DNA of 64,000 nucleotides, from positions 417,501 through 481,500 of the forward strand of contig NC_012778.1 of NCBI RefSeq assembly GCF_000146185.1, written 5' to 3'. This document shows, piece after piece, positions 17,351 through 20,246 of this stretch (the first letter of the stretch is position 1; the number at the start of each line of letters is the position of its first letter). Source of the stretch: [Eubacterium] eligens ATCC 27750. GTDB lineage: Bacteria > Bacillota > Clostridia > Lachnospirales > Lachnospiraceae. Under the pieces are notes generated by a model that searched no databases, was not told the origin of the DNA, and saw only the letters and a list, made by a program, of their open reading frames with translations. A program made the translations under genes and the position numbers.

Positions 17351-18844
17351 TTACTGAAGGAGTGTAAGAACACCCTGGTTAGACTGGTTAGCCTGAGCAA
17401 GCATAGACTGTCCAGCCTGAGCTAAGATGTTGTTCTTGCTGTAGTTAACCATTTCTTCAGCCATATCTGTATCACGGATACGAGATTCAGCTGTCTGCAT
17501 ATTCTCAGAAGCTGTGTCAAGGTTGTTGATTGTGTGCTCAAGTCTGTTCTGAACGGCACCCATCTGACCTCTTGCCTTAGATATCTTCTTAATAGCTGCA
17601 TCGATAGTTGTTGTAGCTGTCTTAGCAGTTTCCTGCTTACTTAAATCTACTTTACCAACACCTACGCCAAGTGCATCAGCGCTCATGTCGTCAAGAGTGA
17701 AGCTCATTGTCTGACCTTCGTTAGCACCAATCTGGAGTTCAATACCCTTGCCTGTATTAGATGAACCTGCCTTTAAGCTAATATTTCCATTTTTATCTGC
17801 TTCAGCACTAATACCAGTCTTTGAGTTGATTAATTTAGCCATCTTAGCCGCTTCTGCAGGGTCTATTGTAGCAGCTGCTGTTTCAATATAGTTAACATCC
17901 TTATAATCATCACCTAATTTAGTTGCATCTGTAACATACGCAAATTTCTGTCCATTAACAGTAAAGATTGCATCTTCAATATTACCAGATCCATCATATG
18001 CCGCATAATCTTTACTTAACTTAGAATAAGCATCTGTACCTGGTGTTACAGTTGCAGCAGCAGCCTTAGCTGTACCCAGCTGTGTTAACACAACATTTGA
18101 TGATACACCTTCTTCTTTAGAAGTGAATGTAATTGTTTTATCTCCTGTAGCATATGTCATGTCAAACTTATCTGCTAAATCTGTATCTTTCAATGCCTTA
18201 ATAATTGCATTTGCATCCGCTTCTTCATCAGCTCCAGCTGTAAATTTAACAGTTGTTGTAGAAGCATTGCCATCTTTATCCATAACTGTTACAGCATATG
18301 TTGACTCTGTACCATCTGCAGTATTTGTAAGTGCTGCTGATACTGATTTACCTGTTGTTGCAGGCTCAGTTGTAAGCATAGCATCTGCGCTCTTACTTAC
18401 AGAAGCCTGTACCTTGCTTCCTGACTGTGAACCATCAAGTAACTTCATTGTATTGAACTCTGTTGTATCAGAGATTCTTGTAAGCTCGCTCTGAAGCTGC
18501 TCGATTTCGTTCTGTACTGCCTCTCTATCGTCATCTGTCTCAGTTCCGTTAGCTGCCTGTACTGAAAGCTCTCTCATTCTCTGAAGGATTGAGTGTGATT
18601 CATTCAAAGCACCTTCTGCTGTCTGGATAAGTGAAATACCATCCTGTGCATTATCAGATGCCTTATTAAGACCTCTGATCTGGCTTCTCATCTTTTCTGA
18701 GATTGAAAGTCCTGCAGCATCATCAGCTGCACGGTTAATTCTGTAACCTGAAGATAACTTCTCTGTTGACTTTGACTGTGCAGATGAAACTCCGCTGAGC
18801 ATTCTGTTAGCATTCATAGCTGCCATATTGTGTTGTACTACCAT
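17351..18844 (-). CDS. flagellin
   Basis: 497 residues. The N-terminal D0/D1 block ('[20 protein letters not shown]', '[20 protein letters not shown]') and the C-terminal block ending '[11 protein letters not shown]' are typical; the middle (about 150-400) is the variable surface part. It is the filament subunit, exported by the flagellar type III system. 'ggagg' is 8 nt before the start. No sigma-28 promoter is visible in the 129-bp gap to csrA, so transcription may come through csrA from the invertible promoter. The leader has several GGA triplets that could bind CsrA. Confidence 0.96.
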
Positions 18845-18852
18845 AGTATATA

Positions 18853-18901
18853 CCTCCGTGTATAAATAATATTTTTATGGAAGGAAATCCGTTCCCGTTC
18901 C
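18853..18901 (-). promoter_or_regulatory. candidate CsrA-binding leader of flagellin mRNA
   Basis: Read on the minus strand, the leader has three closely spaced GGA triplets ('ggaacgggaacgga', 18888-18901) plus a GGA inside the ribosome binding site (18853-18857). 'ggaa' and 'ttcc' can pair around the inner triplets. CsrA recognises GGA in hairpin loops and represses flagellin translation in Bacillus. Confidence 0.55.
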
Positions 18902-18973: not shown

Positions 18974-19267
18974 CTAATCCTGAGTATTATTTTTTTTAGT
19001 ATTCTTATCCTCTTTGATAAGATGGCGGATTTTGGAGACTGTCTCCTGCGAGAGCTTAGGTTCTGCATAGTAAGACGGGGCAGAATGCGGATAATTATTT
19101 TCTGAGCTGTCTTTTTTCCTAGAAAGAACCTTACTTCTTACAATGTTAAGTTCTCTGGGGGCATCAATAAGAAGATGAATGTTGCCATCTGTTCCGCCCG
19201 AATACACTACCCGGATATCATTACCAATATTAATAAATTCACCGGGTTTGATTGTGAGCTTTAACAT
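18974..19267 (-). CDS. CsrA-like RNA-binding regulator with C-terminal extension
   Basis: 97 residues. The first 50 ('MLKLTIKPGEFINIGNDIRV', 'IDAPRELNIVRSKV') follow the CsrA pattern, including the Arg aligned with E. coli R44, but the usual R6-R7 are I-K. About 45 extra residues, basic at the end, follow the core, against 61-75 for typical CsrA. The start at 19267 has 'aaggagg' 8 nt upstream. CsrA binds GGA-containing mRNA leaders and blocks translation, classically of flagellin. fliW, the usual antagonist, is not nearby. The start lies 27 bp from the left inverted repeat of the switch. Confidence 0.8.
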   Translation of the reverse strand: MLKLTIKPGEFINIGNDIRVVYSGGTDGNIHLLIDAPRELNIVRSKVLSRKKDSSENNYPHSAPSYYAEPKLSQETVSKIRHLIKEDKNTKKNNTQD

Positions 19268-19294: not shown

Positions 19295-19327
19295 ATGCAA
19301 CAAAATATTTCAAATTGTTGCATCCCA
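19295..19327 (+). repeat. left inverted repeat / recombination site
   Basis: 33 bp, exact reverse complement of 20028-20060. It holds a core with 9-bp arms 'atgcaacaa' and 'ttgttgcat' around an 11-bp spacer 'aatatttcaaa', the arm-spacer-arm geometry of tyrosine-recombinase core sites. Confidence 0.95.
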
Positions 19328-19350
19328 ACAATTACATGGAGGTAAATAAT

Positions 19351-19914
19351 ATGGGAACATCTCAACCAATCAGAAGCTTGGATGAACTGACAGCTTTTCG
19401 TAGTTATTATTTAAATAAGGAGGTTAATCTTCGTAATTACATGCTGATATGTATGGGACTAAATACTGCATTAAGAATTAGTGATATGTTGCAGTTAAAA
19501 TGGGGGAATGTGTATGACTTTGATAGGAAACATTATGTGAAACATATTGTTGTATGCGAAGGGAAAACAGGAAAGGAGACAAGAATAGCAATTAATAATA
19601 ATCTTATAGAAGCATTTGAAATGTACATGGGAAGTTTAAAGAGTGTTTCAGGTAATGATTATATTTTTACTGGAAAAACAAAGGGAACGCATTTGTCACG
19701 TTCACAGGCATTCAGAATAATTACACATGTAGCGGAAGCCCTTAATATGGAGAATGGAATAAGTTGTCATTCCTTAAGAAAAACTTTTGGATATTATGCA
19801 TGGAAATATGGAACGCCTCCGGCAATGTTAATGGAAATATATAATCATTCGTCATATGAAATTACTAAAAGATATCTGGGAATCAAACAGGATGACAGAG
19901 ATAATGTTTTTTGA
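19351..19914 (+). CDS. short FimB/RecV-like tyrosine recombinase (DNA invertase)
   Basis: 187 residues, catalytic domain only. The active-site set is complete: Arg in 'TALRISD', Lys in 'GKTGKE', 'HSLR' (H-x-x-R), His in 'IYNHSS', and nucleophile Tyr in 'KRYLGI'. The N-terminal core-binding domain of phage integrases is absent, as in the ~200-residue FimB/FimE inverters. The start at 19351 has 'ggagg' 8 nt upstream; an extension to 19315 would begin inside the repeat. It lies entirely between the inverted repeats, so it very probably acts on them. Confidence 0.9.
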   Translation: MGTSQPIRSLDELTAFRSYYLNKEVNLRNYMLICMGLNTALRISDMLQLKWGNVYDFDRKHYVKHIVVCEGKTGKETRIAINNNLIEAFEMYMGSLKSVSGNDYIFTGKTKGTHLSRSQAFRIITHVAEALNMENGISCHSLRKTFGYYAWKYGTPPAMLMEIYNHSSYEITKRYLGIKQDDRDNVF

Positions 19915-19969
19915 AAGTGAATTTATAAATATATTAATAATTAATTTTAAATTAAATTGAAATTTAGAC

Positions 19970-19996
19970 TAAAGAATTTGATGTCGATGTCGATAT
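19970..19996 (+). promoter_or_regulatory. sigma-28 (SigD/FliA) promoter inside the invertible segment
   Basis: TAAA (19970-19973), 15-nt spacer, GTCGATAT (19989-19996); consensus is TAAA-N15-GCCGATAT, one mismatch. The wider 'ctaaag...cgatataa' also matches well. It reads right, towards the right repeat and tRNA-Leu. Sigma-28 normally drives late flagellar genes, and none lies downstream in this orientation. Confidence 0.8.
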
Positions 19997-20027
19997 AACA
20001 TATGAAGTTAATAAATAATGATTAATA

Positions 20028-20060
20028 TGGGATGCAACAATTTGAAATATTTTGTTGCAT
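20028..20060 (-). repeat. right inverted repeat / recombination site
   Basis: 33 bp, exact reverse complement of 19295-19327. Sequence outside both repeats diverges at once, which sets the element's boundaries. Confidence 0.95.
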
Positions 20061-20164: not shown

Positions 20165-20246
20165 GCGGATATGGCGGAATTGGCAGACGCGCTAGATTTA
20201 GGTTCTAGTGTCAACAGACGTGCAGGTTCAACTCCTGTTATCCGCA
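20165..20246 (+). tRNA. tRNA-Leu (TAG)
   Basis: 82-nt class II tRNA. Acceptor arms 'gcggata' and 'tatccgc', anticodon TAG in 'tttaggt', long variable arm, discriminator A. The stretch 19915-20351 otherwise holds the switch promoter, the right repeat and the promoters listed. Confidence 0.95.

What the first reader, a model, noticed from the sequence alone, without database searches (positions are those of the whole stretch)
19295..20060. Self-contained invertible switch with a sigma-28 promoter facing away from csrA-flagellin
Seen: perfect 33-bp inverted repeats, each with 9-bp arms around an 11-bp spacer, enclose a short tyrosine recombinase with a full catalytic set and a TAAA-N15-GTCGATAT promoter near the right end. 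Outside the left repeat, 27 bp away, starts a CsrA-like gene followed by flagellin, both on the minus strand. Neither shows its own sigma-28 promoter. Inversion would place the promoter at about 19359-19385 pointing at csrA, with a leader near 85 nt. Inference: this is phase variation of flagellin through a late-flagellar promoter, and the sequenced state is OFF. Known cases (fim, C. difficile flg switch) use a recombinase encoded outside the inverting DNA or another sigma factor; recombinase, promoter and target in one compact unit with csrA would be unusual.
Basis: partly seen in the sequence, partly recalled or inferred. Interest (0 to 1): 0.92.

Follow-up and report, generated by a model that had tools for sequence, protein, structure and literature searches.

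The report
Flagellin on-off switch by DNA inversion
A gut bacterium carries a small piece of DNA that looks able to flip itself and, depending on its direction, to switch one of its flagellin genes on or off; many relatives carry the same device, a few of them in the opposite direction, and it resembles the classic Salmonella flagellar switch but is built from different parts.

Summary
Observation confirmed. A 766-bp segment with perfect 33-bp inverted repeats holds an intact short tyrosine recombinase and a sigma-28-type box facing away from a csrA paralogue and a 497-aa flagellin (EUBELI_00422, for which a 2013 paper found no promoter). It is not isolated: of the best 80 recombinase relatives in a GTDB scan, 58 lie beside csrA, 53 of these with flagellin. 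With the window and two congeners, 59 of 61 such loci show a site pair. The 7-bp core of the two sites is identical within a locus in 36 of 38 pairs, against 26 of 1406 between loci, as strand exchange demands. The box faces away (OFF) in 50 loci and toward csrA (ON) in 4; one ON/OFF pair of species shares both flanks. Inversion is thus supported by comparison, not seen within a strain. New points: in most relatives the outer site looks like an intrinsic terminator in the OFF state (weak in this window), and switched flagellins usually carry a CsrA-like ribosome-binding site. A new variant of a known kind.

The parts
19295..19327 (+). left recombination site (29-bp dyad 19295-19323 plus 4 bp of further repeat); predicted strand-exchange core 19306-19312
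   Evidence: core position inferred
20028..20060 (-). right recombination site, perfect inverted copy (29-bp dyad 20032-20060); predicted core 20043-20049; in most relatives, less clearly here, also the stem-loop of an intrinsic terminator
19351..19914 (+). short tyrosine recombinase, 187 aa, inside the invertible segment, with GGAGG ribosome-binding site
19970..19996 (+). sigma-28-type promoter box TAAA-N15-GTCGATAT facing away from csrA (OFF)
18974..19267 (-). CsrA paralogue, 97 aa, with R44 but without R6, and a C-terminal tail with a YY motif
18853..18861 (-). CsrA-consensus-like sequence ACACGGAGG overlapping the flagellin ribosome-binding site
   Evidence: consensus recalled
17351..18844 (-). 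497-aa flagellin, equal in length and N-terminus to EUBELI_00422

Best explanation
This is a self-contained phase-variation switch. The 187-aa tyrosine recombinase binds the two inverted 29-bp sites, exchanges strands across a core of about 7 bp and flips the 766-bp segment that contains its own gene and a sigma-28 promoter. In the orientation sequenced (OFF) the promoter fires away from the operon into the right-hand site, which in most relatives looks like an intrinsic terminator together with T-rich flanking DNA. After inversion (ON) the promoter reads through the left site, which lacks a T run, into csrA and the 497-aa flagellin, so that a subpopulation would make the long flagellin under late-flagellar control. 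The co-transcribed CsrA paralogue probably regulates translation of its own operon. Shown by sequence: sites, box, gene order, core identity, and both orientations among relatives. Inferred: recombinase activity, promoter use, termination, CsrA binding and the phenotype.
For: Perfect repeats enclosing an intact recombinase and the box. Prior independent report that this flagellin has a -35-like 'taaa' but no -10 and no identifiable sigma-28 or sigma-43 promoter, whereas the two 270-aa flagellins have sigma-28 promoters (PMC3720852, passages). Six of six congeners with a close recombinase have it beside csrA; flagellin was hit in 4 of 6, the other two contigs (L031, L033) end in or 132 bp after csrA. 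In 22 genomes of the genus the csrA paralogue and the close recombinase occur in the same 7 genomes and in none of the other 15. 47 of 61 csrA-adjacent loci have an inverted repeat scoring 16 or more across the recombinase; control, off-site regions of other loci, 0 of 553. 7-bp core identical within locus 36 of 38, between loci 26 of 1406, 28 different cores. The box lies 12-21 bp from a site in 47 of 50 OFF loci and 13-18 bp in the 4 ON loci. Both orientations exist in two layouts: 43 OFF/2 ON and 3 OFF/2 ON. L111 (ON) and L086 (OFF) share csrA-flagellin on one side and a collinear 3-kb block, 79% identical, on the other.
Against: No same-strain or same-species pair in both orientations and no reads were available. 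OFF dominates, 50 to 4; 5 further loci have an imperfect box in the OFF direction, judged by eye. One of the 4 ON loci, L129, has csrA but no flagellin hit within its 5.9 kb of flank; other genes follow. Loci are not independent: several come from one genome or from close relatives. In the window the terminator is weak: 3 T in the 8 bases after the site, and the terminator scan, limited to loops of 8, did not list it. The box-to-site distance here is 35 bp, as in L060 and L062, not 12-21. No recombinase promoter was found; flanks show no enrichment. 22 of the 80 relatives are not beside csrA.
Confidence: 0.87

Rival explanations
1. The switch is a relic or is locked OFF in this strain; the family inverts, but this copy no longer does.
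For: OFF in 50 of 54 classified loci. In the very close congener G007/AF22-9, a draft assembly, the recombinase frame is broken by a one-base difference.
Against: In the window the recombinase frame is intact with all six conserved residues and the repeats are perfect over 33 bp, longer than the core that has to match.
Confidence: 0.09
2. The outward promoter serves something on the right (a small RNA or a gene), and csrA-flagellin is not its target.
For: In most loci the box faces right. In L136 and L138 a second flagellin lies to the right.
Against: In the window the right flank has a tRNA gene and then an ORF that looks like an aldose epimerase (by eye). Right flanks of the 4 ON loci match no right flank of the other loci with a site pair except L111 with L086. 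Most right sites look like terminators: 48 of 59 with 5 or more T in 8, against 3 of 59 on the left.
Confidence: 0.05
3. It is a small mobile element that inserted upstream of csrA; the inverted repeats are its ends and inversion is incidental.
For: Terminal inverted repeats round a recombinase gene; relatives of the recombinase in viral contigs at 26-46% identity.
Against: Beside csrA in 58 of 80 relatives, box at a nearly fixed distance from the site, only two sites in the genome, and 4 loci with the recombinase outside the repeats (the second site of L135 is poor).
Confidence: 0.03

Closest known systems
Salmonella Hin / hix H segment with fljBA
   Same: Recombinase gene and promoter in the inverting segment, flagellin operon outside that also carries a regulator of flagellin expression; ON or OFF by inversion (PMC3535392 and PMC9368917, passages; sigma-28 dependence recalled)
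   Different: Hin is a serine invertase with a Fis-bound enhancer; here a tyrosine recombinase. The regulator is FljA there, a CsrA paralogue here, and it lies before, not after, flagellin. The outer site here usually looks like a terminator.
Clostridioides difficile flg switch and cwpV switch (RecV)
   Same: Tyrosine recombinase inversion controlling flagella or a surface protein in a gut clostridium; the cwpV OFF state forms a Rho-independent terminator (PMC5386303, abstract and passages)
   Different: One recombinase, RecV, serves both switches; the flg switch is 154 bp between 21-bp repeats, acts after transcription initiation and controls the early flagellar operon; neither switch carries a promoter.
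E. coli FimB/FimE and fimS
   Same: Short tyrosine DNA invertases; matches far below cut-off to two NCBIfam models named tyrosine-type DNA invertase (38.1 and 27.5 bits against 222 and 221; that these are the Fim proteins is recalled); invertible promoter
   Different: Recombinases outside the switch, though 4 relatives here are like that too; sigma-70 promoter; fimbriae (recalled).
Invertons of gut communities
   Same: Invertible elements near a tyrosine-type recombinase, including a group of 33, 32 of them from Clostridia, linked to one invertase group (PMC11892184, passages)
   Different: Its main text holds no word beginning with flagell, sigma, eligens, Lachnospir, Roseburia or Eubacterium; its supplementary tables could not be read, so overlap is not excluded.

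Membership tests
Tyrosine recombinase (PF00589) | family profile match and conserved catalytic residues | tested here: met
   93.2 bits, cut-off 27.1; R42, K72, H140, R143, H166, Y175 invariant in 6 sequences
Invertible promoter switch | inverted recombination sites enclosing a promoter-like box, with identical strand-exchange core | tested here: met
Invertible promoter switch | both orientations exist at one locus with the same flanks | tested here: inconclusive
   seen between two related species (L111 ON, L086 OFF) and 4 ON of 54 classified; within a strain not tested
Invertible promoter switch | expression follows orientation | not testable with these tools
   no transcript data
Hin/fljBA family | serine recombinase with hix sites and Fis-bound enhancer | tested here: not met
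   the recombinase is of the tyrosine class; so it works like Hin but is not a member
CsrA | CsrA profile match and RNA-binding residues | tested here: inconclusive
   Pfam CsrA 61.9 bits over cut-off 27, but NCBIfam CsrA 30.7 and 25.5 bits under cut-offs 73 and 70.1; R44 in 61 of 61, V, I, L or M at position 6 in 61 of 61; the role of R6 and R44 is recalled
sigma-28 promoter | TAAA-N15..17-CGATA box and dependence on FliA | tested here: inconclusive
   position conserved; box not above chance genome-wide; FliA dependence not testable

The most novel reading that the evidence does not exclude
A widespread Lachnospiraceae class of self-contained flagellar switches in which the crossing-over site is also the intrinsic terminator that silences the promoter in the OFF state, and in which a phase-coupled CsrA paralogue takes the place of FljA and tunes translation of the switched flagellin. 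In some relatives the same unit sits between two divergent flagellins and would alternate between them.
Probability: 0.5. Interest if true: 0.82.

Novelty: new variant of a known kind. Interest (0 to 1): 0.73.

Why it matters
Lachnospiraceae flagellins are prominent gut antigens (recalled). If many of them are phase variable and mostly OFF, which flagellin a strain shows to the host cannot be read from its gene list, and the flagellin without a promoter of the 2013 paper is explained. The system would be a convergent counterpart of a classic phase-variation switch, built from an unrelated recombinase, and a compact test system: one gene, two sites, one promoter. It makes the division of labour between flagellin types in a commensal testable by orientation PCR.

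Tried and rejected
A fixed promoter in the right flank that would express the recombinase only in the ON state and explain the OFF bias: the window has TTGAAA-N16-TATTAT at 20122-20095 (minus), but the scan found fewer such sites than its shuffles (6 against 8.7), and across 54 loci the inward strand scores 8.15, the outward strand 8.20 and shuffles 7.80 on average, with 4 and 5 loci at 10 or more. Rejected; where the recombinase is transcribed from is unknown. In 21 of 43 first-layout OFF loci 61 bp or fewer separate the left site from the start of the recombinase match, little room for a promoter inside.

First idea that L035 and L036 are inverted (ON) copies because the recombinase faces csrA: rejected, since their box still faces away; they belong to a second layout, box and recombinase divergent, whose ON forms are L113 and L129.

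FljA-like repression of the other flagellins by the CsrA paralogue: not supported as such. ACANGGA near the start codon is in 44 of 53 switched flagellins and 34 of 61 csrA genes, against 4 of 53 recombinase genes. In the window itself flagellin has it, csrA has not, and the recombinase is one of the 4 exceptions. The two short flagellins of the own genome have TCA in place of ACA. Control of the own operon is the better guess.

Contig ends near the recombinase as a sign of mixed orientation: 11 of 80 within 500 bp against 3.1 expected. Not used: I did not check that the breaks fall at the sites, and repeated flagellin genes could cause them.

Plasmid collection: no match. Rfam: only the tRNA. 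Solved structures: only distant recombinases, best XerA at 5.9e-9. Viral contigs: 70 loci, not analysed further. Papers: ten searches; in the listings, capped at 20 papers each, no title or abstract start reports flagellin inversion in Lachnospiraceae. The library lacks most subscription papers and preprints.

Full report
What is there. The window is bases 417501-481500 of a 2,144,190-bp contig in a 2,831,389-bp, three-contig assembly. From size and content I take it for Eubacterium (Lachnospira) eligens ATCC 27750 (recalled); the flagellin agrees in length (497 aa), N-terminus ([10 protein letters not shown]) and ribosome-binding site with EUBELI_00422 in PMC3720852 (passages). The features of the finding are present at the stated coordinates.

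An old puzzle. PMC3720852 looked for promoters before the flagellin genes of six species. For EUBELI_00422 its table gives a 'taaa' and no -10, and the text says that no sigma-28 or sigma-43 promoter was identified; the two 270-aa flagellins of the same genome were given sigma-28 promoters. An OFF-oriented invertible promoter would explain this. The paper's main text has no 'recombinase' or 'integrase'.

Relatives. In 22 genomes of the genus, 7 carry a close recombinase (E 1.1e-60 or better, the one of G007 in broken form), and the same 7 carry the csrA paralogue; none of the other 15 has a match to it. By my arithmetic such agreement has a chance of 1 in 170,544 if genomes were independent, which they are not. 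In the six congeners csrA lies beside the recombinase in each, and flagellin was hit in four; the contigs of the other two (L031, L033) end in or shortly after csrA. Among 298 genomes drawn from the family, own genome included, 22 have a match at 1e-40.

The sites. Of the 80, 58 have csrA within 1.6 kb, and 53 of these 58 have a flagellin hit; L059, L060, L081 and L115 end within about 500 bp beyond the csrA start, while L129 has long flank and no flagellin. With the window, L035 and L036 this makes 61. An inverted repeat scoring 16 or more joins the csrA side to the far side of the recombinase in 47 of 61; pairing with off-site regions of other loci gave 0 of 553, maximum 14. A wider search called a site pair in 59 of 61; the two without (L061, L097) lie at contig ends. 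That search required a similar core, so the core statistics come from a separate choice: the best arm match on each side, without regard to the other side (29-bp sites, 13 or more of 16 arm bases). In those 38 pairs the 7 central bases agree within a locus in 36, and between loci in 26 of 1406; 28 different cores occur. In the outer arms (positions 1-8 and 23-29) the two sites of a locus agree about as well as sites of different loci; positions 9-11 and 19-22 are intermediate. A recombinase of this class needs homology in the core (recalled), so the two sites of each locus appear to have kept recombining.

Orientation. The sigma-28 box faces away from csrA in 50 loci and toward it in 4: L111, L113, L121, L129. 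In 5 more no box met the pattern; each has a near-match at the same place, facing away, judged by eye. There are two internal layouts. In the first, as in the window, the box follows the recombinase gene (43 OFF, 2 ON). In the second it stands before the gene, divergent from it (3 OFF, 2 ON). In 4 OFF loci the recombinase lies outside the repeats, so that only the box is enclosed (the second site of L135 is poor). The best direct comparison is L111 (ON) and L086 (OFF), both labelled Roseburia: csrA-flagellin on one side, a collinear 3-kb block of 79% identity on the other, cassette inverted. For L113, L121 and L129 no other locus shares the right flank, so the test could not be made. L129 has no flagellin: genes that look by eye like LicD and a nucleotidyltransferase follow csrA. 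The loci are not independent; some come from one genome and some are close pairs.

The outer site as terminator. The RNA of the right site plus ten bases each side folds at -19.4 kcal/mol on average over 59 loci, against -11.3 for the left site read toward csrA. In 48 of 59 loci at least 5 of the 8 bases after the right site are T, in 3 of 59 after the left. In three ON loci the right-site fold is weaker than average (L111 -5.9, L129 -10.7, L121 -14.0), as expected if an A-rich stretch inside the segment helps the stem only in the OFF state; but L113 stays strong (-21.5), and some OFF loci are weak too (for example L115 -10.8, L102 -12.4). The window folds at -16.5 with 3 T of 8, and the terminator scan, which allows loops of at most 8, did not list it.

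CsrA. The paralogue keeps R44 in 61 of 61 loci and has V, I, L or M at position 6 in all 61; it scores below the NCBIfam CsrA cut-offs but above Pfam's. A second csrA of the own genome, with a stronger match, is at C1:262435, near another flagellin at C1:266428. ACANGGA before the start codon is present in 44 of 53 switched flagellins, 34 of 61 csrA genes and 4 of 53 recombinase genes (starts that could not be located were dropped, 8 of 61 for flagellin and 8 of 61 for recombinase). In the window flagellin has it, csrA has not, and the recombinase has. This resembles the recalled CsrA consensus and suggests that the operon is under its own CsrA or the main one.

What it is like. It works like Salmonella Hin/fljBA, with recombinase and promoter in one inverting segment and a flagellin-plus-regulator operon outside. 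It is not a member: the recombinase is of the tyrosine class. Compared with the C. difficile switches, the recombinase is carried within and has only these two consensus sites in the genome. I therefore call it a new variant of a known kind.

Limits. Everything rests on sequence. No strain was seen in both states, no transcript was seen, and OFF dominates, so a locked state in this strain is possible. Of the 22 relatives not beside csrA, L064 and L067 have csrA further off, L069, L094, L109 and L117 lie at contig ends, L101 has flagellin without a csrA hit, L136 and L138 stand between two flagellins, L083 and L126 between two proteins that look secreted (by eye), L106 has sites and a box but neither gene, and ten have neither csrA nor flagellin; the family therefore also serves other genes.

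Noticed in passing
L138 5702-6925 and L136 4292-6888: Cassettes between two divergent flagellin genes, with a sigma-28 box facing the right one; right sites found by scan, left sites matched by eye: apparent two-way alternators. LicD-like genes (by eye) follow both flagellins in L136 and the left one in L138.
   Followed up: partly
L083 5893-6684 and L126 5864-6692: Same kind of cassette with a sigma-28-like box between two divergent genes for secreted-looking proteins (by eye), without csrA or flagellin hits nearby.
   Followed up: partly
L063, L075, L087, L135: Short invertible box before csrA with the recombinase gene just outside the repeats, as in fim-type switches (second site of L135 poor).
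   Followed up: partly
L129: ON-oriented cassette before a csrA without flagellin; genes that look like LicD and a nucleotidyltransferase (by eye) follow.
   Followed up: partly
L088: Two recombinase hits and two flagellin N-terminal hits in tandem in one 12.6-kb locus.
   Followed up: no
L032 1-760 (G007, AF22-9): Very close relative of the window unit with the recombinase facing away from csrA as in the window, a one-base difference that breaks the recombinase frame, and the contig ending inside the segment before the box.
   Followed up: partly
L139-L208: Relatives of the short recombinase, 26-46% identical, in viral contigs; their targets are unknown.
   Followed up: no
L067 6631-8903: Site pair enclosing about 2.2 kb with a sigma-28 box facing away from csrA, recombinase outside.
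   Followed up: no
window 20165-20246: tRNA gene close to the right repeat (Leu by its anticodon as I read it); the outward promoter would read toward it in the OFF state unless stopped.
   Followed up: no
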